NCBI RefSeq assembly: GCF_963678975.1
Contig: NC_089277.1
Span: forward strand, 24,006,672-24,070,671
Direction of reading: 5' to 3'
Length of the DNA: 64,000 bases
From: Dysidea avara
Taxonomy: Eukaryota; Porifera; Demospongiae; Dictyoceratida; Dysideidae
Positions 3,712 through 51,519 of the stretch are shown piece after piece; the first letter of the stretch is position 1, and every line of letters starts with the position of its first letter. Below the pieces are notes generated by a model, which worked only from the letters and a program-made list of their open reading frames with translations, did not search any database and had not been told where the DNA came from. Position numbers and translations under genes: made by a program.

Positions 3712-5349
3712 TATTATAGTATACAATTGTTGATGGACCAGGGTTTCTGGCTACTGCCTTGCTGAACTATCTTATAAAAGGGCAGCTCCAGAAATTTTAG
3801 TGACAGGTCTCCAATTTTCATTACATGTACAGTTAAACCTGGGGGTATGCACTTGCACTCCCCTATTGAAAATTATGTATTCTGAGATTGAATCTGATAA
3901 CAAATTTCACCAAAAAGTCATTTAAAAGCTGACAGTTTAAAACATGTTAGAGAACTGCAACAGGTTAAAGAGTTTAGAGATGGTGTTACAGTATCTGAAG
4001 TTAGAAGCATACAGCAGACGTGAATATTGTTCTGGGGCATATCCCAAGAATAATTTCAGGACTTAACCACTCTGAAATATGCTAATTTTTACTATGTGGC
4101 AAACTAAAAATATGGTTGCTCTATTAGAGTAGTTGACTGCTCTATTAAAGTATTTAGACCTTAACCTTTGATACCTCAGTTGCAAATCAATTTTAATTGG
4201 CTGAATATACTTGACCAGTTTCTGGAAACCTCAGAAACTAGATCTGCTCTGTTATAAAACCTGTACAATATATAGCTCTGCACAGAATACACCTATAACA
4301 TGCAGTGGTAGTAGCTAGACAGGATCTTAGAATGCAGCTCCCTTGAAAATGCTGACTGAATACTGAAAAGTTTTATTTAGCTAACTATTTTGACAACAAT
4401 CAAAGGAAAGTTACTAAAGAAAATAGGTAATACTGTATACATTTGTTTGACTAAATGCATGTACCCATGTATATGCACAGTTATAGCTGCTTACCATATA
4501 CAACATTCAAAATATTTAATTGTGGGTTTTAATTAGCATGTAGGCTTGCCGTTGGGACTACAGCATTTATAAGATAGCCATTGGTAGCATTTGTGTAGTT
4601 AAAAGTCACACTACACAACTAGAAAGATGAAACATCACTGAATGAGATTATACAGCACGATTGACATGTATACTAAATATTTTTAGAGGAGCCCTCTTGA
4701 CCCCCTAAATCTGCTCCAGAGCTTATGTAGGTTCCACTGTACATACTGTGAATCTAGGATATCATTTGAATATCCAATTTACTGGCACTGGCCACACATA
4801 AGTCTCCCATTTGCAGTTCCTCCATAGTTTCACTTGCAACTACAAAAGCATTAAACTGTCACCCCTTGTGCAAAAGCAGGGTAATTTGTTATTTTGAAAA
4901 ATATGTAATGGTATAAATGGCATTATATGTGTAGATCTATACACAACAATTCATGATATTATGTTGAAAGTGTTTTACAATGACTTGTTTGTATAGCAAT
5001 GATGTTTATATACATGTAACTGTGTAGCAGCTATTGTTATATTAGATGTATGTTTTGGTTTTCATTTCATGATTAATTTTTTTTTGCATATAAAGTAATC
5101 AGTAATTGTATGGTAAACAACAAGGTAGCTAATCCAACATTGTTCATATGTGCATGTAATACTGTACACTACAGTGAGATCATTTTAGTGTGTTTACTCA
5201 GTCTGTCAATGAAATCAGCTGCAGGTATACATATTGCTTATACAGTTATGTCATGGTATCTGTATGTTGTATTTACAAATTAAATTTATAGAGAGATCAG
5301 TAAAAGGACCATATACAGTTAAGTGTATTGAATATGAAGTGCACGTACA
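3712..5349. other. Intergenic region upstream of the beta-helix membrane protein
   Basis: The part at 3835-4260 belongs to a dispersed repeat family also seen at 11282-11437 plus 15042-15130, 37420-39300 and 44835-45080. Recurring words are GAAGCATACAGCAG, TGACTGCTCTATTA and CTTGACCAGTTTCTGGAAA. The rest up to 5349 is the probable promoter and leader of the next gene; no TATA box can be called with confidence. Confidence 0.5.
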
Positions 5350-8300
5350 GTGTTATGTAGTGTACTAAATTTGATTGGTTTGTTGCTAGCTTCATTATTC
5401 ATTTGCAATATTCTCTTAGTGATCATCATATTTTATATTTCACTTACTGGACTACTAACCATCATACTTGCTGCTCATAATCAATATCATGTTCATCCTG
5501 ATGATGCCCAATGTCTACAACCACCTTGTCATACACTAGAATACTTCATTAACAACTCTAATGATTACTTTGTGTCTGATACAACACTACTCTTTGGTCA
5601 AGGAGAGTATTATCACATAAAAGGCAACATTACAATTCAGAATGTCACAAATTTTTCACTATTAGGTATCAGTAACCATACCTTACCTGTAAGTGTCATT
5701 AAATGCTTGCCACTATATTCCATATATTTCTACAATGTAATTGATCTTACAATGAGAAACTTGAAGTTTGATGAATGTGGTACTTCATCGCCATCATTTG
5801 TTTATAGTATTCCACATTACTATGGTGAATTTGCATCTTTGTTTTTAGACTACTGCACTAATATCAACATTGCCAACATATACATTAACAACCCGGTAGG
5901 GTATGGGACATTTGCCTTTAATGTGATGGGAAACAATATCCTTGAAAATGTTACTATAATTATGGGTAAGCATGAAATAAACGGTGATTCTATATGTAGC
6001 CATGGAGTGTACTGGGTTACTGGAGATAACAACGCTGCAAAATATGACAAGATAGTTATGGTCAAAATTAGCAACATTGTTTTGAGAGATCATTGCAAGT
6101 CTTGTATATGTAATTCTGATAGGAGCATGCTTGAAATATTATTAAACGGCTACTTCAGTGTCTTTGTAGTTGTTACAAGCTCTAAATTTTCTAACTGGAA
6201 TGGTGGCATGGTGAAGACTTATATTCATTCTTTATCACTTATCAACATACATTTTAGCAAATGCACTTTTGTTTCTAGCAGTGTAACACATGGCCTGATT
6301 GATTTCCAATATGACGTCTCTTGTATCTTTGAGACAAACAAGCATCACCCAAGACTTGAGATTCACTTTTCTGAAACTTCATTTATAAATATTCATCGTA
6401 GAGATGCTGACACTAGTTTAGATCTTAAACTCCTGAAAATTAGGGTAGCGTCAGAGTGTCTTTATGCCAAAATTAAAATTATATTAAATAATATAGAATT
6501 TTATAACAATGGTTTAGCTTTATTGGAAGTGCTCCAGCACAGTCAAGATCAGACATCCATCATGATTTACACTGAAGGTAATTTCATTGCAGACACTAAT
6601 AAGAATGTTTATAGTGCTGATGGTAAATTAACATCATTTAAAAATGTACAATTGCACTTCAATGGAATTACAAAATTCATTAATAATGTTTTCAGTGAAA
6701 TTATTCATTTATTGTCTTCAAAGTTGACTGTCTCTAACACAGTACTGTTTGACAATAATTACAGTGTACAGGTAATTTCTATCATTGGTGTACGGTTGTA
6801 TTTGATGCTCTCAGGTAATATGACACTGACACTGTCCAATAACACAGTTCACAATCAACTAATACACGTTCACCTTGCATCCAATAATCCTTATCCTTAC
6901 TGTCTGTTCCAATACTACACACCCATTCACAACAGATATGAAGACTTTGAAATCAAAATATTCCAAAACAAACATAAATTGCCATATCCTACTGAATTAA
7001 TATATGGTTATATCTATCAGTTAACATCACATTGTGAGTGGGCTCCTGGTGCAGCATTTCAAAATGTCACCCCAAATATTGTGAATAATAGAATCATCAA
7101 TGTCAAGCATGAAAATAGCCTACTGTTAGACTCAATAGGTATTCACACCACAGTTTGCTACTGTCCATCATCATCACATTACAACTGTAGTGTTGATCAA
7201 TTAGGTCCTGTATATCCTGGTGAAAATTTGACTGTGGATTTGTGTCTGCCTTATAATGATGAGGATAGTGGCATCTTGTATGTGGAAACATACAATAAAA
7301 ATTTACCGAAATCAGCATGCCAAATTTATAAATTTGACAGTATGAGATATGTATTCTATAGCAACCAATGTAAGGCTGTTCATTTTCCAATTGCTTCAGA
7401 ACAAGCAGCAGTTTGTGAGTTATTCCTAACAGCACAGCCAAACTTATATACTGATTATGATGCCTTTTATGTAAACCTTCTTCCATGTCCATTAGGATTT
7501 ACATTACAACATGGAATTTGTGACTGTGATCCTGATCTTAGAAAATACATTGATGAGTGTATGATAAGTAGTCAAACAGTCAGAAGACTTTCTAATACTT
7601 ATATATTAGGTATTAACTCAACCAAACAGTACAAGGTGTCCACTGATTGTCCCACCTACTATTGCTTACAAGGTACGACAAGGATTAATTTACATCATCC
7701 AGATGATCAATGTCAGCCTCACAGAACTGGTTTGCTATGCTCACAATGTACAGAACGGTACAGTGTAGTGTTTGGTTCAAACCAGTGTAAAATGTGTTCA
7801 GATCTTCATTTATTATTTATACTTTATTTTGTTTGTACTGGTTTATTACTTATTGTGCTTCTTCTTGTCCTAAACTTGACAGTAACCTTGGGGACTATTA
7901 ATAGTATCACTGTATATGTAAACTTAGTTTGGATAAGTGGTCCGTATTTGCATTTCAAGCAAAGATTTGTGGCAATTTTACAGCCCTACATTTACATTGC
8001 TAATTTTGCACCACCATTTGTTTTGTGCTTTTATAATGGTATGGATCTGTATGCTAAAGTGTGGATACAACTTGCTTATCCAATATACTTGATAATAATC
8101 ACTATTACATTTATTTTGGGTAGCCGTTACTCCACTAAACTTTATCGCTTAACATTTAATAGAGCACTACCAGTACTAGCAACCTTTTTTATGCTTACTT
8201 ACACTAGTATACTACAAGCCATATCTAGTACACCTTTGTACACTACCATCATCACTATACCAAGTCACACTTCCAAGAATCTTTGGTTACTTGATCCAAC

Positions 8301-8970
8301 TATTCCACTATTTGGATGGAAGTTTTCACTTTTGATTAGTGTATGCTTGTTGTTGTTTCTGTTCTTGTTAATGTTCAATGTCATATTGTTGTTTACCAAA
8401 CCACTGATGAGATTCAAAATTATTCATCGATTTAAGCCATTAATAGATGCTTTTCAAGGACCATTCAAAAGTCGGCACTACTACTGGATTGGAATACAAT
8501 TATTGATCAGAAATGTTTTTGTGTTGCTTTCTATATTAGGAAAAACTGTATATCTCACATTTAGTTGTATAATAATGATAACTCTGGCTACAATTCATGG
8601 TTACATTCAGCCCTACAAGAGTAAGTTAATTAACATTCAGGAATCATTACTGCTATACAACTTTGCCATAATGTGTGTCCTCCTTATATTCAATGGAAAT
8701 GAAACAATGAACATAATCACAATGAATGTGATGGTTGGTCTGTCATTTCTTCACTGTCTGGTCGTTGTAGCTTATCATGTGTTTGCATTCATCATTGCCG
8801 TCCATTGTACCAGACTAGTAAAATCTGCAGCAAACATAAGGAATTGCATAGTGCATTATTGCTACCATAAAAGGCAAAGAAAAGTTCACGTTGAAAACTT
8901 GTGTACAGAAATTCCAGAAGTTGCATATAATTTTGCTAACTTTCGTGAACCATTAATAGGTGAAGATTGA
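5350..8970 (+). CDS. Beta-helix ectodomain protein with C-terminal multi-pass membrane region; start codon lost
   Basis: The frame is open for 1,206 codons. A hydrophobic segment (residues about 5-42) resembles a signal or anchor. Residues about 45-600 show irregular short repeats rich in Asn, Ile and Val with many N-glycosylation sites (NVTNFSLL, NMTLTLSNN), typical of a right-handed beta-helix. Residues about 600-815 are cysteine-rich, ending in CSQCTERYSVVFGSNQCKMC. Residues about 818-1160 hold some eight to ten membrane segments, followed by a short cytoplasmic tail. The architecture suggests a cell-surface receptor or channel-like protein; ligand and role are unknown, and any likeness of the membrane part to TRP-like families is a guess. 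The frame begins with GTG, not ATG. Where copy 2 reads ATGTATAGTGTA, this copy reads ATGTAGTGTA, so a 2-bp deletion puts a stop right after the ATG. It needs an upstream exon, a non-ATG start, or is a recent pseudogene. Confidence 0.75.
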   Translation: MLCSVLNLIGLLLASLFICNILLVIIIFYISLTGLLTIILAAHNQYHVHPDDAQCLQPPCHTLEYFINNSNDYFVSDTTLLFGQGEYYHIKGNITIQNVTNFSLLGISNHTLPVSVIKCLPLYSIYFYNVIDLTMRNLKFDECGTSSPSFVYSIPHYYGEFASLFLDYCTNINIANIYINNPVGYGTFAFNVMGNNILENVTIIMGKHEINGDSICSHGVYWVTGDNNAAKYDKIVMVKISNIVLRDHCKSCICNSDRSMLEILLNGYFSVFVVVTSSKFSNWNGGMVKTYIHSLSLINIHFSKCTFVSSSVTHGLIDFQYDVSCIFETNKHHPRLEIHFSETSFINIHRRDADTSLDLKLLKIRVASECLYAKIKIILNNIEFYNNGLALLEVLQHSQDQTSIMIYTEGNFIADTNKNVYSADGKLTSFKNVQLHFNGITKFINNVFSEIIHLLSSKLTVSNTVLFDNNYSVQVISIIGVRLYLMLSGNMTLTLSNNTVHNQLIHVHLASNNPYPYCLFQYYTPIHNRYEDFEIKIFQNKHKLPYPTELIYGYIYQLTSHCEWAPGAAFQNVTPNIVNNRIINVKHENSLLLDSIGIHTTVCYCPSSSHYNCSVDQLGPVYPGENLTVDLCLPYNDEDSGILYVETYNKNLPKSACQIYKFDSMRYVFYSNQCKAVHFPIASEQAAVCELFLTAQPNLYTDYDAFYVNLLPCPLGFTLQHGICDCDPDLRKYIDECMISSQTVRRLSNTYILGINSTKQYKVSTDCPTYYCLQGTTRINLHHPDDQCQPHRTGLLCSQCTERYSVVFGSNQCKMCSDLHLLFILYFVCTGLLLIVLLLVLNLTVTLGTINSITVYVNLVWISGPYLHFKQRFVAILQPYIYIANFAPPFVLCFYNGMDLYAKVWIQLAYPIYLIIITITFILGSRYSTKLYRLTFNRALPVLATFFMLTYTSILQAISSTPLYTTIITIPSHTSKNLWLLDPTIPLFGWKFSLLISVCLLLFLFLLMFNVILLFTKPLMRFKIIHRFKPLIDAFQGPFKSRHYYWIGIQLLIRNVFVLLSILGKTVYLTFSCIIMITLATIHGYIQPYKSKLINIQESLLLYNFAIMCVLLIFNGNETMNIITMNVMVGLSFLHCLVVVAYHVFAFIIAVHCTRLVKSAANIRNCIVHYCYHKRQRKVHVENLCTEIPEVAYNFANFREPLIGED

Positions 8971-11253: not shown

Positions 11254-11676
11254 TCTAAAGAGAGGTGGACTTATATGTGAAGTTTGAAGCATACAACAGG
11301 CATGATCCATGAATGCCATTCTGAGGGGATAGATTGGGGGTATGCCTTCAGGAAAATTTTCAGGTCTTATAAGCTCTGAGATTTAATTTTAGAGTGGTAG
11401 ACTAAATAACAAAATAATTGTTCTTCTAGGATAGTTGCAGGGGCTGATCCAGGAATAAATGAAAGGGGGTGGCTGGCTTAGTTCACAAGCTTTACATGTG
11501 CAGTAAGGGTGTAGCTATACACTGGTGAGAGAGGTGACTGCAGACAGCGTGCGGAGCACGCTTAGCGAAGTGCGAAGCACGAGCTGTCTAGGGGGGTCTG
11601 GGGGCATGCCCCCCCAGGAAAATTTTTAAAATTAGGTGTTCAAAACATGCTATTTAGATCAAATTTTACTTAGTTT

Positions 11677-11870
11677 CAAAACTTTTGTTCTTATACAGTA
11701 ACTGTTGGCTGCTACTGCTACTGCCCTAACTACACTATAGTGTACAGATACAATATCCTAAAAGGGTCCCTTTAGGATAAATTGTATCTGTACACTGTAG
11801 TGTAGTTAGAGCAGTAGCAGCTAAGAAAAGCAGTAGCAGCTAACAGTTACTGTATAAGAACAAAAGTTTT
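11677..11870. repeat. Long hairpin inside the hAT element
   Basis: The left arm, starting AAAACTTTTGTTCTTATACA, is complementary to the right arm ending in GAACAAAAGTTTT. The centre pairs too, around TGTACAGATACAAT, with AGGGTCCCTTTAGGAT at the tip. The right arm has an extra internal repeat of GCAGTAGCAGCTAA. It may be a nested foldback element or a structural part of the 5' leader. Confidence 0.75.
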
Positions 11871-12181
11871 ACCGTAGCCCCCTTCCCTCCACCCTGAATC
11901 CACCAAAGAATTAGATTGAATCTGGAAGTGATTTTGACTGAAAAGAACAATTGTATGTAGCTACTAGCTAGAATTTCAGACAGTGTACTAGCTGTTTAGA
12001 AGAAACACTGTAAAGCTAGCTACAGCATATAGTTTAAAAACTTGTTGGCAGCTGTGCTATTATGTCCATTTAACAACTGCAGCTGTAAATGAACAAAACC
12101 ATAATAATAAATGTCCACCTGAAGGTTTTGCTTCAAATAAAGTGCACTGTTAGTGTAGATGCCATGTGCTAGTTTGTACAG

Positions 12182-14944
12182 ATGTCCAGGTCTATTTTAG
12201 ATTATTTTAGATCAAAAGTTATAGCCCAACAAGGACAGAATCCTCTAAGTGAAACCCTTACTACTGATGGAAGTAACAGTGACAGTGAAGTTGGGGAAGA
12301 AGGTTTGATTGACAATGAGACTGAGTCTGGAAGTGAAACTCCAGTCACAATCACTAATGAAAGTGGTATCAACAATGACAGTGATGGGAATGAATGTCAA
12401 TCTCAGGGCATAAATGAAGAGACAGAGGCTACCCCTTCCACTACTGAAAGTATTAGAGTTAATGCGGATTTCATTGAAGCAGCTAACTGGCCAGATAATT
12501 TGACAGTGAGCCTTCAACAATCAACTGGTGAGCTTTGCCGTGAGGTTGCACCAGAAACTTTCCATGATAGTGATCCTGTTGAATTTAATAGCAATGGTGA
12601 GCCATCTTATCCTAACGTGAACTTTGTATCTAACTCAGAATCTAGTGATATTCTGCAAGTGGCCATTAGTAGATCAAGAATAATAAAAGATCATGAAAAA
12701 TATGAATTGATTACTTCATCACAAAGCAATCTAAGGAGCACTGATTTTGACACAGTCTACTTCACTGTTTCTGGAGGAAGGAAAAGAAAACAGATAACTT
12801 TTCAATCTCGATGGCTTCAAGATTACAAATGGTTACGTTATGGTTTGGAGAATAGTCAAGGAGGATGGTGTTTGCCCTGCATTTTGTTTTTAACTGACAG
12901 TGAAAAGACACATCTCGGTGCATTTGTGTGTACGCCCTTCAAGAATTACAACAAATCCAAGGAGTTGATGGAGAGGCATGCCAAACATGCATATCATTTG
13001 AGAGCAGTAGATCATGCCTTTGAATTTACAAGAAGGTGGGCTAATCCTGAATCAAGAATCGATAGTCAGTTAATTGATAAAAGCTCTAAGAATTTTAAAT
13101 TTAATACTGAAGTATTGCCAACAATTGCTGAGACAGTATTATTGTGTGCAAAGCAACGAATTTCTCTCCAAGGTCACAATCAGGATAAGGTGAACTTTAC
13201 ACAGGAGCCATTAAGAAATGAAGGAAATTTCATTGCCATACTTAGATTGCTGGCAAAGAACAATAAAGCACTGAGCGAACACTTAATACTTGGTCCAAAG
13301 AATGCAAAATATACCAGTAAGACCGTTCAAAACGAGATACTGGAAATAGCTGCTGACCAAATTCGTGCATTTTATCGAACCTGCATACAGAAGTGTCCAC
13401 ATTTTTCATTAATTGCTGATGAAGCTACATCTCATGGTAAGGAGATTTTGTCGGTTTGCTTAAGGTTCTTGGAAATTGATAATGAAAATTTTCGTGTGAA
13501 GCCAATAAAGCACGAAGTGTTACTTGACTTCCATTTTCTTCAGAGGATAACTGGGAAAAGCATTGCAGATGGCATCTTGCAAGTTTTACAAAAACATGAA
13601 ATTGATGTTAAAAATTGCCGAGGGCAGGCATACGATACAACAGCTTCCATGAGCTCTTCAAATTCTGGTGTACAAGCACATATAAAGAATAATGCACCAG
13701 ATGCAGAATTTCAAGGTTGCTGCCTGCATAGTTTGAATCTAGTAATATGCCATTCTTCAAAGGTTCAAGCTGTAAAAAATATGATTAATAACTGTCATCA
13801 GGCGTTCTTATACTTCCACAACTCTCCAAAGAGACAACGGTTTCTTGAACACATAATTCAGCGCTTGTGTCCATCTGCCAGGAAATCTAAGATAAATGGG
13901 CTGTGTAAAACAAGATGGGTTGAACGGCATAATACTTTCACCACAATTTTAGAATTGTATCCTTACCTTATTAAGACTTGGGAACATATTTGTTCACCTG
14001 CTGATGATGACAATGAAATTTATCCTGATGGAAATACTTGGAACTGGGATTCTGAATCTCGTAGCACTGCTAATGGTTTGAAGCACATTTTTACTAGCTT
14101 TGAGCACGTGGTTGCATTTTTGCTATCAAAAGAATTATTGGAGCCGATTAAACCAATTGCAGAATGTTTACAAGGTAGACTACAAGAGGTATACTTTGGT
14201 TTTAAAAAAGTTGATGAAGTCAAGGAGCATTACAAGCAACTTCGTGAAAATGTAAATGCTGAACATAATAGAATTTATCATAAAGCTCTAAATCTATGCA
14301 GGGATATTAGCAGCAGCGAAAGTATGCCCCGTGTTATAAGAGGCCGTCAAACTAGACCAAACCCTACAGTAAGCTCACCAACTGATTACTGGAGAGTGAC
14401 AATTACCATTCCTTTGTTAGACTCAATTATAAGTGAATTGGAAGCCAGATTTTCTGTAGATACACGAGCACATTATGAACTGTGTGCATTGGTGCCCACT
14501 GTAATTACCACAAAAGACGAACATCAACTGTGTACCATCTTAAAATCTAAATGGAGTCATTTGCTACCAGCAGAAGATGACCTTGACAGTGAACTTGCTA
14601 GATGGAAAGCTCACTGCAATAAATTCCATGCCACTTTAAAGGAGAAGTCTATAACTCACTTGCTGAGTGAAGATGCAGATCCAATATTCTTCCCCAATAT
14701 AAGAGAACTCCTGTGCATATTGGTAATACTTCCGATTGGAAGCACTGAAGCAGAAAGGACCTTTTCTTGTCTCAGGCAAATTCATTTGTGGTTGCGCACC
14801 ACTATGACGGATGAAAGACTGGGCAACCTTGGGGTGTTAGCAATGCAAGGATTTAGCTTTCAACTGAATGTTGAACAAATATGTAAAGAGTTTGCAACTA
14901 AACATAGCAGAAAAATGTGTACAAGTAGTGTTTTATATGATTAG
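12182..14944 (+). CDS. hAT-family transposase (ZMYM1-like, TTF zinc finger)
   Basis: A 920-residue frame without interruption, starting at an ATG. Residues about 1-180 are acidic and Ser/Asn-rich. Residues about 205-285 fit a TTF-type zinc finger (WLQDYKWLRY, then CLPC and HAKHAYHLRA). The following region fits DUF4371, as in ZMYM1-like and KIAA-type hAT transposases. Likely catalytic acids lie in LIADEATSHG (about residue 410), GQAYDTTASM (about 484) and GSTEAERTFSCLRQ (about 852); CCLHSLNLVI (about 512) matches the conserved Cys/His block. The C-terminal hAT dimerisation region is complete. It would bind the 16-bp ends and cut and paste the element. TTTGTACAG just before the ATG could be a splice acceptor, so a 5' leader intron is possible. 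Absence from copy 2 suggests recent movement. Confidence 0.9.
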   Translation: MSRSILDYFRSKVIAQQGQNPLSETLTTDGSNSDSEVGEEGLIDNETESGSETPVTITNESGINNDSDGNECQSQGINEETEATPSTTESIRVNADFIEAANWPDNLTVSLQQSTGELCREVAPETFHDSDPVEFNSNGEPSYPNVNFVSNSESSDILQVAISRSRIIKDHEKYELITSSQSNLRSTDFDTVYFTVSGGRKRKQITFQSRWLQDYKWLRYGLENSQGGWCLPCILFLTDSEKTHLGAFVCTPFKNYNKSKELMERHAKHAYHLRAVDHAFEFTRRWANPESRIDSQLIDKSSKNFKFNTEVLPTIAETVLLCAKQRISLQGHNQDKVNFTQEPLRNEGNFIAILRLLAKNNKALSEHLILGPKNAKYTSKTVQNEILEIAADQIRAFYRTCIQKCPHFSLIADEATSHGKEILSVCLRFLEIDNENFRVKPIKHEVLLDFHFLQRITGKSIADGILQVLQKHEIDVKNCRGQAYDTTASMSSSNSGVQAHIKNNAPDAEFQGCCLHSLNLVICHSSKVQAVKNMINNCHQAFLYFHNSPKRQRFLEHIIQRLCPSARKSKINGLCKTRWVERHNTFTTILELYPYLIKTWEHICSPADDDNEIYPDGNTWNWDSESRSTANGLKHIFTSFEHVVAFLLSKELLEPIKPIAECLQGRLQEVYFGFKKVDEVKEHYKQLRENVNAEHNRIYHKALNLCRDISSSESMPRVIRGRQTRPNPTVSSPTDYWRVTITIPLLDSIISELEARFSVDTRAHYELCALVPTVITTKDEHQLCTILKSKWSHLLPAEDDLDSELARWKAHCNKFHATLKEKSITHLLSEDADPIFFPNIRELLCILVILPIGSTEAERTFSCLRQIHLWLRTTMTDERLGNLGVLAMQGFSFQLNVEQICKEFATKHSRKMCTSSVLYD

Positions 14945-15305
14945 TATGAGCTGTTAATGCTTAATTTGCATGCCGTGATATATAGTTTAATCCAGGGTGG
15001 GTGGCTAGCCACCCCATCCACCCCCCCTGGATCAGCCCCTGAGTTGACTGTTCTATTATATATAGAATTGTCTGAAACTATACTTGACCAGTTTCTGGAA
15101 ATCTCAGAATCCCCCTAGATCTGCACTTGATCATTCACTGTCCAGTCCACTAGTCTAGTCCAGTGATTGTATACAACCGTGCATGCCATTGTTTCTTTAA
15201 GCGGTACTGTAGCTATGCATGGGTTCGATAAAGTGACTATGTTATTAAAAGTAAACGAATGAACTAGGAGGAAAATTAGAATTTTAAGTTGGATTAGCTA
15301 GGGAT

Positions 15306-17273: not shown

Positions 17274-20200
17274 ATGGAAAAGTTGCGGATGATTCCGTCG
17301 GATAAAGGGCTTATTCCTCCAGGAACAGTGCACGCAGGAGTGAATGTAAGAGGTATGATCTCGGTCGCTTCCCGGCGACTAGGTCAGCCATTGTACTGTG
17401 GTTAGGGCCCGGGGTGGCACTCCAATATATCCTGTACTCTGATCTTCGTCCTCAGTCAGAGTGAAAGTCAAGCTATAATTTGCAGTCGGTAAAAGGACAA
17501 GCACAGCTTGAAAGGTGTATACCAGTACTATCGATACTTTCAGACAAGAGTACATAATAATAATAGAAGAGGGAGGAGAGTGTCTAACTCTCAATATACT
17601 CCATACAAACACACTGCGCTCAAACCCTCCTACGTCAATCCATAAAACTTCTAGTAATAAATCAATACCTTTAAGTGAACAGAAGACTGTTGATATTTCC
17701 TAATTAAAGCAGTAGAAGTGCTACAACCTCCTTCATAGAGCAAACCATTTGTCACCCTTGGTGGCTATAGTTGATTGCGCGAGGTCTGAGCGCAGTGAGT
17801 TTGCACAAGGTCTTAGCGTTTGCGCAAGGTCTTAGCGCAGTGAGTTTGGTGAATCCACTGAAGTTAGACACTCTCCTCCCTACTCTATTATTATGTACTC
17901 TTGTTTCAGATTAGCATTGTGAACGTACACTGTAAATTTACAAAAATATAGAAAAATTTAGTCAAAATGTGATTTTTAGTGAAAGTCAAAGTTTATTTTT
18001 TGTGTTTGACAAGATCGGTATTGGCCCCTTGTGTGGTTAGCCGGAACAGACACTGAGCAGACTTCACACTGAGCATTGGTTAATATTTGCCTGGTGCTGG
18101 CCAAGGGGACGACATCAACTGTAATTCTGTATGAAACGTTTAGAAAATTGCAATCCGGCCAGGTGGGACCTATGAATCTGGTGAGTGGACTCTTACATAC
18201 TTTGCATACTCTCTTTTCATCGATGTTATTTACGTATATACCGTATATGACCGTATTAAAGCCGGGCTCAAATACACACAGGGGCTCAAATATACGCCAG
18301 GTACAGCTAGGGGACTGTCATAATAAACGCCTGGGCTCATTTAAACGCCGGGGTGCTAATGATATGCACTGAAAGGGGTTCTAAACTTGTGTCAGCTGCT
18401 AACTATATAGTGATGTCTCGTCACCAGTCTTGTGATGTCTTGTCTTGTTCGACTATGCCTTCTCTTCTGGTGATGGCCATAGCGTATTTATCGTGGTCAT
18501 TGTCATCTTTCCTCCCAACTTCCAATGTTTCACCCAGCAGAGGAGTCCAAATGGGCTTATGTACGTGATGGGCTATGGATTTCGTATTTCGTAGGTACTT
18601 GTACTGGCACCTGTCATTCTCAACGAGTGGCTAGTAAGAAATAAATTCCCGGGTCCAAATTAATGCCGGTCTCGTTTAAACGCCGGGTCAAAAATGATTT
18701 ATAGGAAATAAATGCCCAGGCTTCTATACGGTCATATACGGTAAGTTGATTGAAACAGTTTACAAATACAAACTCTCAATAATATTGCAGACTGGAATCT
18801 TGCTGTGGGATATAGCATACAGGATTTTCAAGGATCTTGGTGTCGGACCCCTTTGTTACAGCCTAGTGTGAAATCAACAACATATTGTTTTCTATTGAAA
18901 ATTTAACACAATCATCATGCATGTTGACCTCATCCTCTGTCCCTGCCTCAACTTTATTTACTCTTTGAACCTGGCTGGCACCATCGTGACCTAATCATAG
19001 GTTACGTAGTGTATACCTTAAAATTCTTGAGGTGCAAAATTTTTGTAAATCACTTTTTAGCTACGAAAATTTTCTTCCGGATTTGCAAATGATAACTGCC
19101 TAGCTACAATAGTTTCCCTCGAATCTTGCCATAGTCGCTAGTCTACAAAAGTTTTCTAGCTCAAAACTTTACGTATACTATAAACTACTTGAGTAACAGG
19201 GATGTGTTCTGGAATTCCTTTCTGAAATTTTGAACTTCATAATGAAAAAAAAAAGGGTATAACTAACTTGGAATTTTAAATAATGATGTAGTACAGTAGC
19301 TGAACAGTTTTCCTTTTCAGTTGGAGAATTTGTATTATGTATTTGGATCACTATAATACCAGACCAGCCACAACCATATGATTTAGTTATGTTAGCTATG
19401 ACATAATGGGAACCAAGCAAGAAAGCCAGTATGCCACACCGTGTATATAATGACAGGTGTGATTTTTACACATGCATAGCTCCATGGCTCCTCTGCACCC
19501 CATTATAGCTGTAGAGTAGACCACACTGAAAATTTGATTAAATTTGCACAAGCCATTTGTGAGGTACATAGGCATTGAAAATTTTGATTTTTCTCTTTAT
19601 TATTAACTTATTAGGGGTCTAGATTTTTTTTATGAACACTTTACAAAAATTGCTAACATGTAACTAAATTGCCTTGAACTTTGAACTTTAGTGCAAATAG
19701 AGAGGGTATAAAGGTGAATTTACATACTGTAGAAAGTTGGCTATGAATCTGTTAAGTATACAGTACATGATGTTATGAACATTAATTCTTATAAAAAAAA
19801 GATAAGACTTTTGTCATGGCTACAGGGTAAACCACATAAGGTTGAAATTTGGTGTGTTCATTGTAGTAGTGACTTTTGATGGCTTGAAAAACAGTGGAGT
19901 TTTAGCAGCACTGTTACAGAGTTACAAAGCAAAAATCAAACAAGTGTAAGATCACATGGTCGAGATAGTCAGTCAGTAAAAGAATCCACTAAATTATTCG
20001 TAGCAACTTTTTGGAAGTGTTTCAGGTTGTACTGAAGACACTTTTGGGCTTGGTTATTCCTAACCAATACTGCCAAGGTGCCATGGTGGTATTGCGGGAC
20101 TGATTTTAGGGTCATATATTTTTGGCCAAACCTTAATCATGATCCCTTATATATAGTATACTATTGTACTGTATGATTACTGATCATTTATCTTAGAATG

Positions 20201-21719
20201 TAGTTTAGTAACTATCAATAGTCGAAATGTAGCAATTACTAGCCTAACCTATAAAGCAAAACACACAACTTAATGCCCCGTGTTGCTCAATTTGTATCTT
20301 TGAGCATCAAAACCGCATTCCCATGATATTGCCTTGGGTTAATCCCTAGTTAACACCTTTGAATGATGCTTAAGTGCATATACACAGTATTTCTGTGTGT
20401 GCATGCACATGTGCATGTTACAGTACATATATGCCACAGTGGTTAACAATATGTCCATTATATTAGGTGAGACCCTCTACATTGGTCAGTATGCACCTCA
20501 CCATCCTTTTAATAATGAATATCCTTTTGGAATTATCACACCTTCACAAGAAATGATAGCATACTGTGACTACAGTAACACAAGTGACAAGGAGTTAACA
20601 CTGAAGCTTTGTGTAAGGTATAAAGCTTTGGCTGGCAGAGACTCTGTGGTGTTTTATTGGAAGCCATGTGATGAATATTTTCTAAAAGCTCCAAAGTACT
20701 TCCCAGAAGATATTGTGTTTTCAAACAAAACTCGTAAATCACTTCTCTATTTTGTTGCTCAGATTGATCCCCATATTATCACAGAGAGCAAAGTAGTAGG
20801 AAAATATAACAAAAGTAAATTTCCAGCAGATTTTTATGGCCCACTTGTTGGAGTCGGACATGCTTGGTATGTTGAAGGCACTTGTGAGCAAGGTCACCGT
20901 ACACCTATTACCTCTTTTAATGCTTATGTACCTTATGATGGAAAGATATATGAAGTGTCCAAATTTTCATTTCTCTGCTCACGTCAATTGCCCAGGTTAA
21001 GTCATATTACACATCCAAGAGATGAGTGGGTAAAAATCTTTAGCCATGATCTTCCATCTAATGCATTTCCTGCTGGAATTGCTCCTAATGGAGAAGTTAT
21101 ATATGTCGGTAGAGCAGAGCGCCTCAATGATGAGCCCAATGCTGATAAACTTGATCCTTATAATGAGATTCCTGGACATGTGACACCTTCAGATATGCAT
21201 CTTCATATTACATGGAAATTTCTTGAACATATTTATGACAGCAATGATGGGTTTGAAATGTTAGTTGAGGAGACTCAAGATTTGCTTGAATGGGTTGTAG
21301 GCTCTCTTAGAAGGGTGCCCCGAAATGCTGTAATTGCCGGCGTTGGAAAATTTACAGGTTTTGATATCACGTACTGCATTGGGCGTACAGTAACTGGCAG
21401 TGACCTATCAGTTGGGAAGACCTTCAGTGGTGCTCCTATTAAACTACCAGATAGTAGGGTTTACAACACACAGTTGGTAGGAAAGATTAATAGGCTTTAT
21501 GGCAATAGGTTGTGTGTTGCATGGAATGGCGATGAGTACTTATACAACAAATTTGAAGTGTTAGTGTTGAAAAAGAAGTTTTCACCAAAAAACCTGCAAC
21601 GTCTTTGTTGTAATGCCATCATCATTCTCACAAGGGGTATGCCTCACATAGTCAACCAGTTGGATCTTCCTGCACAGCTAAAAGAGTTCTGTAAAGTGAC
21701 TAGTAACAAAGTAGATTAA
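17274..21719 (+). CDS. DM9-repeat protein with C-terminal SOCS box (copy 1), two exons
   Basis: I join 17274-17352 to 20467-21719: 443 residues. Exon 1 (26 codons plus one base) ends at GTATGATC; exon 2 follows TATATTAG in the matching phase. The join is supported because IPPGTVHAGVNVR plus GETLYIGQY makes a DM9-like strand motif and three copies of exon 1 stop at the same base. Residues about 213-300 (NAFPAGIAPNGEVIYVGRAE) and 302-393 (PRNAVIAGVGKF to YNKFEVLV) are DM9 domains; the N-terminal 200 residues look like more divergent ones. Residues about 399-437 match a SOCS box: SPKNLQRLCCNAI fits the Elongin-BC box and LDLPAQLKEF the Cullin-5 box. DM9 proteins studied in insects and oysters bind mannose or mark infected cells. 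The likely role, by inference, is a cytosolic adaptor bringing glycan-bearing targets to a CUL5 ubiquitin ligase. Alternative: translation may start at a nearby ATG such as 20451 without exon 1. Confidence 0.8.
17542..17907. repeat. Foldback stretch, mostly absent from copy 2
   Basis: The left arm (about 17543-17590, ACAAGAGTACATAATAATA then GGGAGGAGAGTGTCTAACT) pairs with the right arm (about 17862-17907). Copy 2 lacks about 17542-17875 and keeps the right-arm remainder CCTCCCTACTCTATTATTAT. The loop has a repeated AAGGTCTTAGCG word near 17790-17850. It could be an insertion in copy 1 or a deletion in copy 2. Confidence 0.6.
18241..18741. mobile_element. TA-flanked MITE (copy 1)
   Basis: A 501-bp element with ends CCGTATATGACCGTATTAAA and its near complement (TATACGGTCATATACGG), flanked by TA on both sides. 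The TA target points to the Tc1/mariner/pogo group. Internal words AAACGCCGGG and AAATGCCCGG repeat in both orientations. Copy 2 carries the same element at the same place. Confidence 0.8.
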
Positions 21720-32000: not shown

Positions 32001-35000
32001 TTTCATGCAGCTATATTAGTTATATTGTGTATGTAGCATAATGTTTAAACTGCATGCCTTGATGTCTCAGTGTAAATTGCATGCACTCACAATGAGATGT
32101 GCAGTACAACTATATTGTTACAAAGCAAGGCAGTGAATATTCTCTTTGATATACTGTGTGATCATATTTGAACTTCCATGTACACAAAATCAAGTTCACA
32201 TTTTTATCACAAGTGGATTGCTGGCCTAATAGACTACCATATCTTTTCTTCACAGCTGATGAGTCTGGGTTCTGCATTAGCTTTTCTCAGACCCTATAAA
32301 AGCCACAGAGTGGAGGTTTGGCACCATTCAATGGCCGTGGGTTTGTTGGAATGGCATTTAGTGAGTGGGGGAAACCATTGAGGGTTGTTAGAAAAACGGA
32401 CGAAAACGTGGTGTGAAGTTTATTTACATACTATAGTACAACAATTACTTAAAATCACTATATCCACTAAGTCAAACGAAGCTTTCTGTGTTGAAGCTGT
32501 TTTTTTTTTTTGTTTGTTTTTTTCGCATATCGACATATGTACACAGTTTTATGTCTACAGAATTATAATCGATGTATGTACAATGTCATTCTAATACACT
32601 TATTTTGGTTACTAAGCCACTTGCTTTGTGTATGTAGGGCGTGCCAAATGTGTACACTGCATATATATAGCAACATATAATTATATTAATCATTACTATG
32701 TCACATGACAAAAGTAACAATCGCATTCATTACCATGCTACTTGTAACTGTAGTATCCTTCAGTGATAAATTCTGTAAATAAACTCCCTGTACATCGGCA
32801 ATCCCTAGTATTAAGAATTTCCACCAGTTTGCCTTAACCTTTGCCACAAAGTTTCTCTGCAGAGCCATGTAGGGTCCACAGGTTACACTGAGTACAAAGT
32901 AAACACCAGCAGCCAATGTAGTAGATATGTCCCTCCCTGTGTGGTTGTCTAGTAGGATAACAAATACTCCTGTTCCTGTCCATAACAAGGACAGCATCTG
33001 ACCAGTCACTAGGACATAAAAGAAGTATCTAGAAAATAAATCAGATTTTATAGATACACTGTAGCATGCAAGTATAATCTGATTATTAATGAATTAAATT
33101 TATGCATGTTCACTTATAATGTCTCCACTTTTTGGCTGCATAATGCAATGTCAAGCATCTTTCCTTGAGAGCTTAATACATACACAGAATTTCTGTGCAT
33201 GTATTAAGCCGTGACAGAATGGCATTGCCAGCTATGGACTTTAATTCACTTTTTGAATGAATCACACAGAGAGCTAATACTCATTTCAAAAGCATGGTTC
33301 TTGGCAAACATACATATACTATATTTCTTATTCATTCCATGCACATTGCACTGTATTACTACGTAAGTATATAAAAGTGTGCTGTGTGTGCACTGTATTA
33401 TATAAACACAGAGTTCTATGGAATAATGCCCTCAAGCTTGCTTAGTCATGCGCTACAACATAAAGCCGTTAAAGTCTAAGTAGCTAAAGTCTTTGAGCAG
33501 GCTGTAGGACCAGGTGTCCTACAGACCTTCCGCACTTGTGCTGTAAAGCATTAATAAAAAAAAAGCCTTCGGGTCTGTAAATTGTGCGTTTCAAAGTCTA
33601 TGTAGCCTCCTTGCAGTTCCATAGTGGGATGGTAGTATATTATGTACATTTGTAGACATAAATGATGTTTAAATTTGAGAGGTTGCCAATGGATACACAA
33701 GGTTTTAAAATCTTAATTGCTATTTTGGTATTATTTTCAATATTTACATATGTTTAAAATCTGTCTTTATGGAATACAGAATGTTAACGATTTCAGGATT
33801 GTTAGCACCCACATTTATGCATAGTGGAGGTAGAAAGCTACTATCATGTACTGTGACCATATACAGGGGATTTTGAAAATGGACTTATTTTTTGTTGTTG
33901 CTTTTCTGCTTAGTGGACTATATGCGTGATGATGCACACAGATTAAGCAACCACTATCAACAATGTGTTTGATCATGTGACAAAACATTTACAACTTATA
34001 TTATTATAATAGTCCTAAATGATAGTTCATACAAGTCGATTATTATCATAATATTTTCTTATAGTTATGTAGGCCTCAAGCTATATGGCCCAGAATATGC
34101 AACTGAGCCTGCGGAAACAGGGAATGTGGGCACAAATGACAGTATTATTAGCCTTGTCACACAACAGGTCATATCTTATATAGGACTAGAATAGAATATT
34201 TGTATACCATAACTTGCATCTTAACGCCAATTAAAATTTGTCTTAAGGCTGAAAATTTCATGACTATTATAGCATAACAACCTTAAAAGTTATGCGCTAT
34301 CAAAGTATAAAAAGACAGGAAAATTTGCTCGAGCAAATTTTATATGCCCACATGCCCTGTTTTTGCAGGCCTGGTCACATTAATTGAAACTCCTAAATTT
34401 CACATTGTGCAATGGCATGCTCATAAGGGACCGTACGCAAGGAAATTTTGACGTCAAAAAACTTTGACGAATTCAGACTTCAGCAGATTTGACAAATAAA
34501 ATGTTGACGAAAATCAAGAAATTGTAGGCAAAACCTGTACTTTTAAGGGCGCTTATAAACATTTGACGAATTTAAATTTGACGAATTAAATTGATTCGTC
34601 AAATTCGTCAAATTTTTTTGACATCAAAATTTCCTTGCGTACAGTCCCTGCTCATAATACTGTTTTGCATACTTGTTGCAAAATTGGTAATTATGTAGTG
34701 TAGACACTAGACAGAACCATTTTATCAAACAGATGTACAATTTTTTCCAGGGCATGCCCATGCAGGCCCTATATAGTATTGGCAGCAAATCCATGCTTGT
34801 TACTGTGCTCCATGCACGTGATGCGTATACACCCCGACTAGACATTGGGTGACCTGCAGTTCGAATCCTGGGGTTGGAGGGATTTTTTTCCTTACTTTGG
34901 CCCCTTTTCTGTTACACCTTTCCAGCTATAAGTCATTAAGTCTAAGTCCTTGAAATTAGGTTAGGTAATCCTAAGGCTGCAGCACATGTTGCTGTAGACC

Positions 35001-37024: not shown

Positions 37025-37059
37025 TACCTCAATCTTGATAATTTATCAGTGTACGTATA

Positions 37060-39127: not shown

Positions 39128-39129
39128 TA

Positions 39130-47326: not shown

Positions 47327-50300
47327 ATGGAAAAGTTGCGGATGATTCCGTCGGATAAAGGGCTTATTCCACCAGGAACAGTGCACGCAGGAGTGAATGT
47401 AAGAGGTATGATCTCGGTCGCGTCCCGGCGACTAGGTCAGCCATTGTACCTCGCATTGTACTGTGGTAAGGGGGTGGCACTCCAATATATCCTGTACTCT
47501 GATCTTCGTCCTCAGTCAGAGTGAAAGTCAAGCTATAATTTGCAGTCGGTCAAAGGACAAGCACAGCTTGAAAGGTGTATACCAGTACTATCGATACTTT
47601 CCTCCCTACTCTATTATTATGTACTCTTGTTTCAGATTAGCAATGTGAACGTACACTGTAAATTTACAAAAATATAGAAAAATTTAGTCAAAATGTGATT
47701 TTTAGTGAAAGTCAAAGTTTATTTTTTGTGTTTGACTGAGGATGAAGATCGGGATTGGCCCCTTGTGTGGTTAGCCGGAAAAGACACTGAGCAGACTTCA
47801 CACTGAGCGTTGGTTAATATTTGCCTGGTGCTGGCCAAGGGGACGACATCAACTGTAATTCTGTAACGTTTAGAAAATTGCAATCTGGCCAGGTGGGACC
47901 TATGAATCTGGTGAGTGGACTCTTACATACTTTGCATACTCTCTTTTCATCGATGTTACTTACGTATATACCGTATATTACCGTATTAAAGCCGGGCTCA
48001 AATACACGCAGGGGCTCAAATATACGCCGGGTACAGCTAGGGGACTGTCATAATAAACGCCTGGGCTCATTTAAATGCCGGGGTGCTAATGATATGCACT
48101 GAAAGGGGTTCTAAACTTGTGTCAGCTGCTAACTATACAGTGATGTCTCGTCACCAGTCTTGTGATGTCTTGTCTTGTTCGACTATGCCTTCTCTTCTGG
48201 TGATGGCCATAGCGTGTTTATCATGGTCATTGTCATCTTTCCGCCCAACTTCCAATGTTTCACCCAGCAGAGGAGTCCAAATGGGTTTATGTACGTGATG
48301 GGCTATGGATTTCGTATTTCGTAGGTACTTGTACTGGCACCTGTCATTCTCAACTAGTGGCTAGTAAAAAATAAATGCCCGGGTCCAAATTAATGCCAGT
48401 CTCGTTTAAACGCCCGGTCAAAAATGATTTATAGAAAATAAATGCCCGGGCTTCTATACGGTCATATACGGTAAATTGATTGAAACAGTTTACAAATACA
48501 AACTCTCAGTAATATTGCAGACTGGAATCTTGCTGTGGGATATAGCATACAGGATTTTCAAGGATCTTGGTGTTGGACCCCTTTGTTACAGCCTAGTGTG
48601 AAATTAACAACATATTGTTTTCTATTGAAAATTTAACACAATCATCATGCATGTTGACCTCATCCTCTGTCCCTGCCTCAACTTTATTTACTCTTTGAAC
48701 CTGGCTGGCACCATCATGACCTAATCATAGGTTACGTACTGTATACCTTAAAATTCTTGAGGTGCAAAATTTTTGTAAATCACCTTTTAGCTACGAAAAT
48801 TTTCTTCCGGATTTGCAAATGATAACTGCCTAGCTACAATAGTTTCCCTCGAATCTTGCCATAGTCGCTAGTCTACAAAAGTTTTCTAGCTCAAAACTTT
48901 ACGTATACTATAAACTACTTGAGTAACAGGGATGTGCTCTGGAATTCCCTTCTGAAATTTTGGCCTTCATAATGAAAAAAAAAGGGTATAACTAACTTGG
49001 AATACTATAAACTACTTGAGTAACAGGGATGTGTTCTGGAATTCCCTTCTGAAATTTTGGCCTTCATAATGAAAAAAAAAGGGTATAACTAACTTGGAAT
49101 TTTAAATAATGATGTAGTACAGTAGCTGAACAGTTTTCCTTTTCAGTTGGAGAATTTGTATTATGTATTTGGATCACTATAATACCAGACCAGCCACAAC
49201 CATATGATTTAGTTATGTTAGCTATGACATAATGGGAACCAAGCAAGAAAGCCAGTATGCCACACTGTGTATATAATGACAGGTGTGATTTTTACACATG
49301 CATAGCTCCATGGCTCCTCTGCACCCCATTATAGCTGTTGGGTAGACCACACTGAAAATTTGATTAAATTTGCACTAGCCATTTGTGAGATACATAGGCA
49401 TTGAAAATTTTGATTTTTCTCTTTATTATTTACTCATTAGGGGTCTAGATTTTTTTATGAACACTTTACAAAAATTGCTAACATGTAACTAAATTGCCTT
49501 GAACTTTAGTGCAAATAGAGAGGGTATAAAGGTGAATTCACATACTGTAGAAAGTTGGCTATGAATCTGTTAAGTATACAGTACATGATGTTATGAACAT
49601 TAATTCTTGCAAAAAAAGATAAAGACTTTTGTCATGGCTACAGGGTAAACCACGTAAGGTTGAAATTTGGTGTGTTCATTGTAGCAGTGACTTTTGATGG
49701 CTTGAAAAACAGTGGGGTTTTAGCAACACTGTTACAGAGTTACAAAGCAAAAATCAAACAAGTGTAAGATCGCATGGTCGAGATAGTCAGTCAGTAAAAG
49801 AATCCACTAAATTATTCGTAGCAACTTTTTGGAAGTGTTTCAGGTTGTACTGAAGACACTTTTGGGCTTGGTTATTCCTAACCAATACTGCCAAGGTGCC
49901 ATGGTGGTATTGCGGGACTGATTTTAGGGTCATATATTTTTGGCCAAACCTTAATCATGATCCCTTATGTATAGTATACTATTGTACTGTATGATTACTG
50001 ATCATTTATCTTAGAATGTAGTTTAGTAACTATCAATAGTCGAAACGTAGCAATTACTAGCCTAGCCTACAAAACAAAACACACAACTTAATGCATGCTC
50101 CGTGTTGCTCAATTTGTATCTTTGAGCATCAAAACCGTATTCCCATGATATTGCCTTGGGTTAATCCCTAGTTAACACCTTTGAATGATGCTTAAGTGCA
50201 TATTACACATGTGCATGTTACAGTACATATATGCCACAGTGGTAAACAATATGTCCATTATATTAGGTGAGACCCTCTACATTGGTCAGTATGCACCTCA

Positions 50301-51519
50301 CCATCCTTTTAATAATGAATATCCTTTTGGAATTATCACACCTTCACAAGAAATGATAGTATACTGTGACTACAGTAACACAAGTGACAAGGAGTTATCA
50401 CTGAAGCTTTGTGTAAGGTATGAAGCTTTGGCTGGCAAAGACTCTGTGGTGTTGTATTGGAAGCCATGTGATGAATATTTTCTAAAAGCTCCAAAGTACT
50501 TCCCAGAAGATATTGTGTTTTCAAACAAAACTCGTAAATCACTTCTCTATTTTGTTGCTCAGATTGATCCCAATATTATCACAGAGAGCAAAGTAGTAGG
50601 AAAATATAACAAAAGTAAATTTCCAGCAGATTTTTATGGCCCACTTGTTGGAGTCGGACATGCTTGGTATGTTGAAGGCACTTGTGAGCAAGGTCACCGC
50701 ACACCTATCACCTCTTTTAATGCTTATGTACCTTATGATGGAAAGATATATGAAGTGTCCAAATTTTCATTTCTCTGCTCACGTCAATTGCCCAGGTTAA
50801 GTCATATTACACATCCAAGAGATGAGTGGGTAAAAATCTTTAGCCATGATCTTCCACCTAATGCATTTCCTGCTGGAATTGCCCCTAACGGAGAAGTTAT
50901 ATATGTCGGTAGAGCAGAGCGCCTCAATGATGAGCCCGATGCTGATAAACTTGATCCTTATAATGAGATTCCTGGACATGTGACACCTTCATATATGCAT
51001 CTTCATATTACATGGAAATTTCTTGAACATATTTATGACAGCAATGATGGGTTTGAAATGTTAGTTGAGGAGACTCAAGATTTGCTTGAATGGGTCGTAT
51101 GCTCTCTTGGAAGGGTGCCCCGAAATGCTGTAATTGCTGGCGTTGGAAAATTTACAGGTTTTTATATTACGTACTACATTGGGCGTACAGTAACTGGCAG
51201 TGACCTATCAGTTGGGAAGACCTTCAGTGGTGCTCCTATTAAACTACCAGATAGTAGGGTTTACAACACACAATTGGTAGGAAAGATTGATAGGCTTTAT
51301 GGCAATAGTTTGTGTGTTGCATGGAATGGCGATGAGTACTTATACAACAAATTTGAAGTGTTAGTGTTGAAAAAGAAGTTTTCACCAAAAAACCTGCAAC
51401 GTCTTTGTCGTAATGCCATCATCATTCTCACAAGGGGTATGCCTCACATAGTCAACCAGTTGGATCTTCCTGCACAGCTAAAAGAGTTCTGTAAAGTGAC
51501 TGGTAACAAAGTAGATTAA
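47327..51519 (+). CDS. DM9-repeat protein with C-terminal SOCS box (copy 2), two exons
   Basis: Exons 47327-47405 and 50267-51519, same splice sites and length (443 residues) as the copy at 17274. By direct reading exon 2 differs from copy 1 at about 25 of 1,253 bases: roughly 17 change the residue and 8 are silent. Changes include Asp to Tyr and Cys to Tyr in the second DM9 repeat (FTGFYITYYIGR), Gly to Cys at the start of that repeat, and Cys to Arg inside the Elongin box, giving LQRLCRNAI, which is nearer to the usual SOCS-box consensus. Exon 1 encodes the same residues as copy 1 with one silent change seen. No frame lesion, so both copies appear able to make protein. The role is inferred as for copy 1. 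Confidence 0.8.
47971..48471. mobile_element. TA-flanked MITE (copy 2)
   Basis: Counterpart of 18241-18741, same length and TA flanks, ends CCGTATATTACCGTATTAAA and TATACGGTCATATACGG. Confidence 0.8.
48920..49113 (+). repeat. 97-bp tandem duplication, copy 2 only
   Basis: A unit starting near GAGTAACAGGGATGTG and containing AATGAAAAAAAAAGGGTATA appears twice; copy 1 has it once near 19190-19285. Confidence 0.8.

What the first reader, a model, noticed from the sequence alone, without database searches (positions are those of the whole stretch)
17274..21719. DM9 lectin-like repeats fused to a SOCS box: a possible sugar-sensing ubiquitin-ligase adaptor
Seen: two clear DM9 repeats (about residues 213-393) are followed directly by a SOCS box with both an Elongin-BC box (SPKNLQRLC) and a Cullin-5 box (LDLPAQLKEF). 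Known: DM9 proteins bind mannose-type sugars or relocate to intracellular pathogens in insects and molluscs; SOCS-box proteins recruit CUL5 ligases. I do not know of a described DM9-SOCS fusion. Inference: a cytosolic receptor that tags glycan-bearing intruders or damaged vesicles with ubiquitin.
Basis: partly seen in the sequence, partly recalled or inferred. Interest (0 to 1): 0.8.

Follow-up and report, generated by a model that had tools for sequence, protein, structure and literature searches.

The report
DM9 repeats fused to SOCS box
An animal gene present in two near-identical copies joins repeats of a sugar-binding type (DM9) to a tail that normally recruits a ubiquitin ligase, but a key residue that holds mannose in the best-studied DM9 lectin is changed, so what it recognises is open.

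Summary
Exons 17274-17352 and 20467-21719 encode a 443-aa protein with DM9 repeats (E 2.2e-25, four stretches) and a C-terminal SOCS box. The SOCS match covers all 39 profile positions. It scores just under Pfam's cut-off in the whole protein (22.3 vs 23.5 bits) but above it in the tail alone and in a second gene copy. The tail is predicted as three helices; 43 of 50 listed Foldseek rows are from SOCS- or VHL-box entries, none significant alone. A copy with 96% protein identity lies at 47327-51519, and a third first exon at 36624. Best reading: a cytosolic substrate receptor of an Elongin B/C-cullin ligase. The 'sugar-sensing' part is weakened: of two residues essential for mannose binding in the oyster DM9 lectin, Asp22 is Ala in 15 of 15 alignments, and Lys43 is not Lys in 13 of 15. 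Counterparts of the weaker second site are partly kept. Cullin 5 is likely but unproven: LP-Phi-P reads LDLP, and a Cullin-2 box fits too. No DM9-SOCS fusion appeared in what nine open-access literature searches listed. New variant of a known kind.

The parts
17274..17352 (+). Exon 1 of copy A (26 codons plus 1 base): start codon, first half of the N-terminal DM9 unit; donor AG|GTATGA
   Evidence: Translation; exon-1 copies with 100% and 70% protein identity at 47327 and 36624, start and donor kept; no other ATG between it and the in-frame upstream stop in all 3 copies
17353..20466 (+). Intron, GT-AG
20467..21719 (+). Exon 2 of copy A: rest of the DM9 array, SOCS box and stop in one frame
   Evidence: the stop-to-stop frame 20367-21716 has 450 codons, the longest in any of 300 base shuffles of that stretch (3 frames of one strand) 137
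17295..20555 (+). N-terminal DM9 half unit, about residues 4/8-56, interrupted by the intron
   Evidence: PF11901 E 2.2e-4, 21.6 bits (cut-off 26.2) on residues 1-60
20556..20888 (+). Unassigned stretch, about residues 57-167, no family match; a possible insertion into the first DM9 unit
   Evidence: No Pfam match at E up to 1 for window:20469-20880; none at E up to 10 for window:20739-21020
20889..21080 (+). Back half of a DM9 unit running into the next (about residues 168-231), weak
   Evidence: PF11901 E 0.01 and 0.0046, both under the cut-off
21021..21272 (+). DM9 repeat R2 (residues about 212-295); carries Ala232, Lys254, His264, residue 269, His273, Trp276, Glu280
   Evidence: PF11901 E 1.4e-16 for window:21003-21569; CGL1 alignments
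21285..21569 (+). DM9 repeat R3 (residues about 300-394); carries Lys344/Lys366, Trp379, Glu383
   Evidence: PF11901 E 1.9e-5, 25.0 bits alone
21582..21695 (+). SOCS box (residues 399-436): BC-box-like NLQRLCCNAI (402-411), cullin-box-like LDLPAQLKEF (425-434)
   Evidence: PF07525; three predicted helices 400-414, 419-424, 429-442, mean pLDDT 70.9; Foldseek rows
47327..47405 (+). Exon 1 of copy B
50267..51519 (+). Exon 2 of copy B, open; 17 residue changes over the 443 aa of both exons, no indel
   Evidence: SOCS_box 25.4 bits, above the gathering score
36624..36702 (+). Third, diverged exon 1 (copy C, 70% protein identity), start and donor kept; no exon 2 found in the window, the repeated block starts at 37025

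Best explanation
The gene encodes a cytosolic substrate-recognition subunit of an Elongin B/C-cullin-RING ubiquitin ligase. The C-terminal SOCS box docks on Elongin C and a cullin, CUL5 more likely than CUL2. The three-to-four-unit DM9 array in front of it is the recognition part and presents a bound ligand for ubiquitin transfer. Shown here by computation: the gene model, both domain types in one exon, two open copies, a predicted three-helix tail, and loss of the Asp22 counterpart that is essential for mannose binding in the oyster lectin. Inferred: location in the cytosol, assembly with Elongin/cullin, transfer of ubiquitin. The ligand is unknown. I think a protein, or a glycan held in a remodelled or site-B-type pocket, is likelier than mannose held in the known site A.
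For: DM9 and SOCS_box profile matches. One uninterrupted reading frame joins R2, R3 and the SOCS box. The SOCS box is C-terminal, as in the CIS/SOCS family (PMC4812663, passages). BC box meets 3 of 4 defining positions (Leu403, Cys407, Ile411; Asn402 for S/T/P; consensus from PMC4878042, passages). Predicted three helices; the first 19 of 50 listed Foldseek rows, and 43 of the 50, are from SOCS1, SOCS2, ASB9 or VHL entries. 0 of 10 reversed or shuffled tails match SOCS_box. No signal-peptide-like or transmembrane stretch, best 19-residue mean hydropathy 1.15. Second copy open, with no gap column in 1253 aligned exon-2 bases against 493 gap columns in the intron.
Against: In the whole protein of copy A the SOCS match is 1.2 bits under Pfam's cut-off. 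Foldseek E-values are 2.1 or worse, the two best rows have rmsd above 11, most others align only 33-34 of 53 positions, and VHL entries are many in the PDB; no control fold was run. LP-Phi-P is LDLP. phmmer of the 63-aa tail finds no PDB chain at E up to 10. Constraint between the copies is weak: dN/dS about 0.52 and exon 2 hardly more conserved than the intron (98.0% and 97.7%). No expression, binding or complex data. The whole exon-2 model failed (pLDDT 27.9).
Confidence: 0.6

Rival explanations
1. One reading: the DM9 array binds mannose-type glycans and the ligase tags glycan-bearing intruders or damaged vesicles, as the F-box protein Fbs3/FBXO27 does for lysosomes.
For: The DM9 lectin CGL1/CgDM9CP-1 binds mannose (PMC4932603, PMC5712788). 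Glu59, His52, Lys114 and Glu130 counterparts are present (Glu280, His273, Lys344 or Lys366, Glu383). phmmer on copy A pairs Lys43 with Lys254. Lectin-type ubiquitin ligases exist (PMC6389600, passages).
Against: Asp22 is Ala232 in 15 of 15 alignments; Lys43 meets a residue other than Lys in 13 of 15. D22A and K43A each abolish mannose binding in the oyster protein, and both residues are called highly conserved over 477 DM9 proteins.
Confidence: 0.23
2. The SOCS-like tail is decayed or serves only as an Elongin B/C-stabilised fold; the protein works as a binding protein without ubiquitin transfer.
For: Deviations at both motifs (Asn402, Asp426); SOCS1, with an incomplete Cul5 box, shows no detected Cul5 binding (PMC4812663, passage).
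Against: All 39 profile positions matched in both copies; the tail differs by 2 residues (C408R, S439G), and copy B scores higher.
Confidence: 0.15
3. The ligase is a CUL2 (VHL-box-type) ligase, not a CUL5 one.
For: Residues 427-435 fit the Cul2 box Phi-P-x-x-Phi-x-x-x-Phi if Cys435 counts as hydrophobic (consensus); VHL entries are the most frequent Foldseek rows, 34 of 50.
Against: Pfam matches SOCS_box over its full length and lists no VHL family at E up to 10 (that Pfam holds a VHL-box model is recalled); L425, L427 and P428 of LP-Phi-P are kept.
Confidence: 0.2
4. The two copies are alleles placed in tandem by the assembler, or recent copies on the way to decay, so copy number and 'cluster' carry no meaning.
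For: The blocks align in pieces of 90-98% identity; weak constraint; the neighbouring 1210-aa frame is broken into several frames in the second block.
Against: A 3.6-kb hAT-like element in one block only, several other insertions, and a diverged third exon 1 between the genes; both DM9-SOCS frames are open.
Confidence: 0.35

Closest known systems
SOCS-box substrate receptors of CRL5 (SOCS/CIS, SPSB, ASB, WSB and others)
   Same: C-terminal SOCS box of about 40 residues behind an interaction domain; predicted three helices
   Different: Interaction part is a DM9 array, not SH2, SPRY, ankyrin or WD40; LDLP for LP-Phi-P; Asn at the first BC-box position
DM9 lectin CGL1 / CgDM9CP-1 of Crassostrea gigas (PDB 5id8, 5mh0-5mh3)
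   Same: Paired DM9 repeats; R2-R3 of copy B aligns with its residues 3-104 (E 0.0039 for wild type, 0.00059 for the D22A mutant); whole copy A only at E 1.1 and 0.17
   Different: Asp22 counterpart is Ala, Lys43 counterpart probably lost; insertions in R2 and R3; further N-terminal DM9 parts and a SOCS box
Lectin-type F-box proteins Fbs1-3 (FBXO2, FBXO6, FBXO27)
   Same: Would combine a lectin-like domain with a cullin-ligase adaptor in the cytosol
   Different: F-box/SKP1/CUL1 instead of SOCS box/Elongin/cullin; a different sugar-binding domain (recalled as unrelated); here sugar binding is unshown and doubtful
Natterins and the insect DM9-farnesoic acid O-methyltransferase proteins
   Same: DM9 fused to another domain (PMC5712788, passage)
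   Different: Partner is a pore-forming or a methyltransferase-type domain; no Pfam match to either here

Membership tests
SOCS-box proteins (PF07525) | Profile match over the box | tested here: met
   39 of 39 positions. Whole copy A 22.3 bits, under the cut-off of 23.5; exon-2 product of copy B 25.4; 53-aa tails 27.6 and 30.6
SOCS-box proteins (PF07525) | BC box (S,T,P)Lxxx(C,S,A)xxxPhi | tested here: inconclusive
   Leu403, Cys407, Ile411 met; Asn402 in place of S/T/P (consensus, residues)
SOCS-box proteins (PF07525) | Cul5 box with LP-Phi-P | tested here: inconclusive
   L425-D426-L427-P428: 3 of 4; the region also fits a Cul2 box
SOCS-box proteins (PF07525) | Three-helix fold | tested here: met
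   Helices 400-414, 419-424, 429-442, mean pLDDT 70.9, pTM 0.44, two-row alignment; 43 of 50 listed Foldseek rows from SOCS- or VHL-box entries, none significant alone. A moderate-confidence prediction
SOCS-box proteins (PF07525) | Binds Elongin B/C and cullin; ubiquitin ligase activity | not testable with these tools
   Needs complexes or assays; no complex prediction on hand
DM9 proteins (PF11901) | Profile match, usually as tandem repeats | tested here: met
   E 2.2e-25, 4 stretches
Mannose-binding DM9 lectins | Asp22 of CgDM9CP-1 | tested here: not met
   Ala232 in 15 of 15 alignments, both copies
Mannose-binding DM9 lectins | Lys43 of CgDM9CP-1 | tested here: inconclusive
   Residue 269 (Asp or Tyr) in 11, His264 in 2, Lys254 in 2 of 15 alignments
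Mannose-binding DM9 lectins | Second site: Lys114, Glu130, Phe55, Tyr123 | tested here: inconclusive
   Lys (344 by MAFFT, or 366 by its GK motif), Glu383 and Trp276 present; Tyr123 is Leu353 in the two-repeat and Cys376 in the single-repeat MAFFT alignments
Mannose-binding DM9 lectins | Binds mannose | not testable with these tools
   Needs purified protein

The most novel reading that the evidence does not exclude
A class of Elongin B/C-cullin ligase receptors in an early animal lineage uses a DM9 array, with a remodelled pocket, to read foreign or misplaced glycans or glycoproteins in the cytosol and mark the carrier with ubiquitin: a SOCS-box counterpart of FBXO27, arisen independently and expanded in tandem.
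Probability: 0.2. Interest if true: 0.8.

Novelty: new variant of a known kind. Interest (0 to 1): 0.52.

Why it matters
SOCS-box receptors are known with a limited set of recognition domains, and the DM9 proteins studied so far are sugar-binding immune proteins or parts of pore-formers. A DM9-SOCS protein would tie a pattern-recognition domain directly to ubiquitin transfer. That a residue essential for mannose binding is lost makes the ligand the real question, and it is testable with a two-repeat construct.

Tried and rejected
Structure prediction of the exon-2 product with copies A and B as alignment gave mean pLDDT 27.9 and was discarded; no fold search was run on it. Relatives: the search for related loci with exon 2 confirmed none in genome contigs or viral contigs (34 and 2 stretches matched a pattern, none by tblastn); a degenerate DM9 motif (recalled, not taken from a call) had 0 exact matches in either; tblastn in phages at E up to 0.01 found none. 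These hold bacteria, archaea, viruses and phages, so other animals with the fusion could not be looked for. No whole genome is held for this window. NCBIfam gave only one weak, below-cut-off row. Rejected: fusion as a gene-model artefact (R2, R3 and SOCS box share one exon and frame); chance SOCS match (0 of 10 controls). Considered and not carried: positive selection between the copies, too few changes.
Full report
What is there. Spliced at 17352/20467, the window encodes a 443-aa protein. hmmscan finds DM9 (PF11901) at E 2.2e-25 in four stretches and SOCS_box (PF07525) at E 1.5e-4, 22.3 bits, residues 399-436, all 39 profile positions. That score is under the family's gathering score of 23.5. 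The same box in the exon-2 product of a second copy scores 25.4, and the 53-aa tails of copies A and B score 27.6 and 30.6. None of one reversed and nine shuffled 60-aa tails was listed with SOCS_box at E up to 10.

Gene model. Exon 1 occurs three times: at 17274, at 47327 (identical protein) and at 36624 (70% identical; NG86 dN 0.17, dS 0.53 over 26 codons), each with the start as the only ATG after an in-frame stop and a GTATGA donor. Adding exon 1 raises the DM9 score from 72.3 to 89.3 bits, because an N-terminal DM9 half unit runs across the intron. R2, R3 and the SOCS box share one frame in exon 2. The stop-to-stop frame, which includes some intron upstream, has 450 codons against at most 137 in 300 base shuffles. 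Scored alone, the N-terminal half unit (21.6 bits), the stretch near 168-231 (16.2 and 17.3) and R3 (25.0) fall under Pfam's 26.2; R2-R3 together score 60.9.

Duplication. Blocks 3429-31851 and 37025-64000 align in pieces of 90-98% identity (pieces of 250 bases or more were listed), with insertions. The two proteins differ at 17 of 443 residues; dN 0.0165, dS 0.0320; 26 base differences. Exon 2 is 98.0% identical with no gap column, the intron 97.7% with 493 gap columns. So constraint is weak evidence, mainly the lack of indels. The third exon 1 lies about 0.3 kb before the second block, and no exon 2 for it was found in the window. I infer a duplication breakpoint in its intron, with its exon 2 to the right of the window. 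Misplaced alleles are not excluded.

SOCS box. AlphaFold2 on the 53-aa tail with two sequences gives three helices (residues 400-414, 419-424, 429-442), mean pLDDT 70.9, pTM 0.44. Foldseek against the PDB gives no hit at E 0.001 or better; the best E is 2.1. Of the 50 rows listed (56 in all at E up to 10), 43 are from entries of SOCS1 (2), SOCS2 (5), ASB9 (2) or VHL (34), and ranks 1-19 are all of these; the other 7 rows are unrelated. Which chain was matched I take from entry titles and chain lengths. The two best rows (SOCS1) have rmsd above 11; most of the rest align 33-34 columns at about 2 A. VHL is heavily represented in the PDB and no control fold was run. The first BC-box position is Asn, not S/T/P, and LP-Phi-P reads LDLP. 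The Cul2 consensus Phi-P-x-x-Phi-x-x-x-Phi also fits 427-435 (consensus sequences from passages of PMC4812663 and PMC4878042). So 'Elongin B/C-cullin adaptor' is better supported than 'CUL5'.

DM9 and sugar. In CGL1/CgDM9CP-1 site A uses Asp22, Lys43, Glu59, His52 and Ala127/Phe126; site B uses Lys114, Glu130, Ala56, Phe55 and Tyr123 (PMC4932603, section read). D22A and K43A each abolish mannose binding (PMC5712788, passage), and both residues are called highly conserved in 477 DM9 proteins (section read). HMMER aligns R2-R3 of copy B with residues 3-104 at E 0.0039; the best match is the D22A mutant 5mh2 at E 0.00059. Whole copy A matches only at E 1.1 (wild type) and 0.17 (D22A). I then made 15 alignments of R2-R3 with CGL1 (MAFFT in four settings, phmmer in both directions and blastp for each copy, hhalign for the pair; one further weak blastp row per copy pairs other repeats and is not counted). 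Asp22 meets Ala232 in 15 of 15. Lys43 meets residue 269 in 11 (Asp in copy A, Tyr in copy B), His264 in 2 (phmmer, copy B) and Lys254 in 2 (phmmer, copy A, as). I prefer His264, because IPGHVTPS reads like the PGK motif and has CGL1's spacing to Glu59, but this is a judgement. His52 is His273, Phe55 Trp276, Glu59 Glu280, Phe126 Trp379, Glu130 Glu383 where the alignment reaches; Lys114 falls on Lys344 (MAFFT) or, by its GK motif, Lys366. Site A is therefore unlikely to hold mannose in the known way; a site-B-like pocket may remain.

Location. No signal-peptide-like or transmembrane stretch by a simple hydropathy scan, best 19-residue mean 1.15. No signal-peptide predictor was at hand. Cytosolic location is an inference.

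Literature. Library: open-licence PubMed Central only. 'DM9' with 'SOCS box': 1 paper, the two terms in unrelated places. 'DM9' with 'Elongin': 0. 'DM9' with 'ubiquitin ligase': 7, listing only, none on such a fusion by title or abstract start. 'DM9' with 'Amphimedon': 2; passages of one were read and describe natterin-type proteins. 'DM9 domain': 30, 20 listed. 'SOCS box', 'sponge', 'Elongin': 10, listing only. Searches (20 of 148 listed; 12 of 12; 20 of 298 listed) showed no such fusion in the titles and abstract starts listed. One paper lists DM9 fusions with pore-forming and methyltransferase domains and, in the passage seen, names none with SOCS. Domain databases of animal proteins could not be searched, so the fusion may be in predicted proteomes without having been described.

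Verdict. A real DM9-SOCS reading frame, most likely an Elongin B/C-cullin substrate receptor; ligand open, canonical mannose binding unlikely.

Noticed in passing
11438-15041: A hAT-like element with a 16-bp perfect terminal inverted repeat and a 923-codon open frame (DUF4371 E 4e-8; hAT dimerisation region E 0.0014, under its cut-off), present in the first block and absent at the matching place (about 45004) in the second.
   Followed up: partly
5338-8967 and 40111-43968: A 1210-codon frame (DUF7630, just below cut-off) is open in the first block; in the second it is split over several frames and holds a 198-bp tandem duplication at 41627-42032.
   Followed up: partly
37698-39129: Arrays of a 21-bp unit (about TTTGCAATTGAATTCGTCGCG), in both orientations, close to the start of the second block.
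   Followed up: no
138-1574: 479-codon open frame with a sulfotransferase match (PF13469 E 1.6e-9).
   Followed up: no
32704-33093: Minus-strand frame matching SLC35F (E 8.8e-12), probably an exon of a solute carrier gene, in the spacer between the blocks.
   Followed up: no
20556-20888: About 110 residues between two DM9 half units match no Pfam family and may be an insertion in the first DM9 unit.
   Followed up: partly
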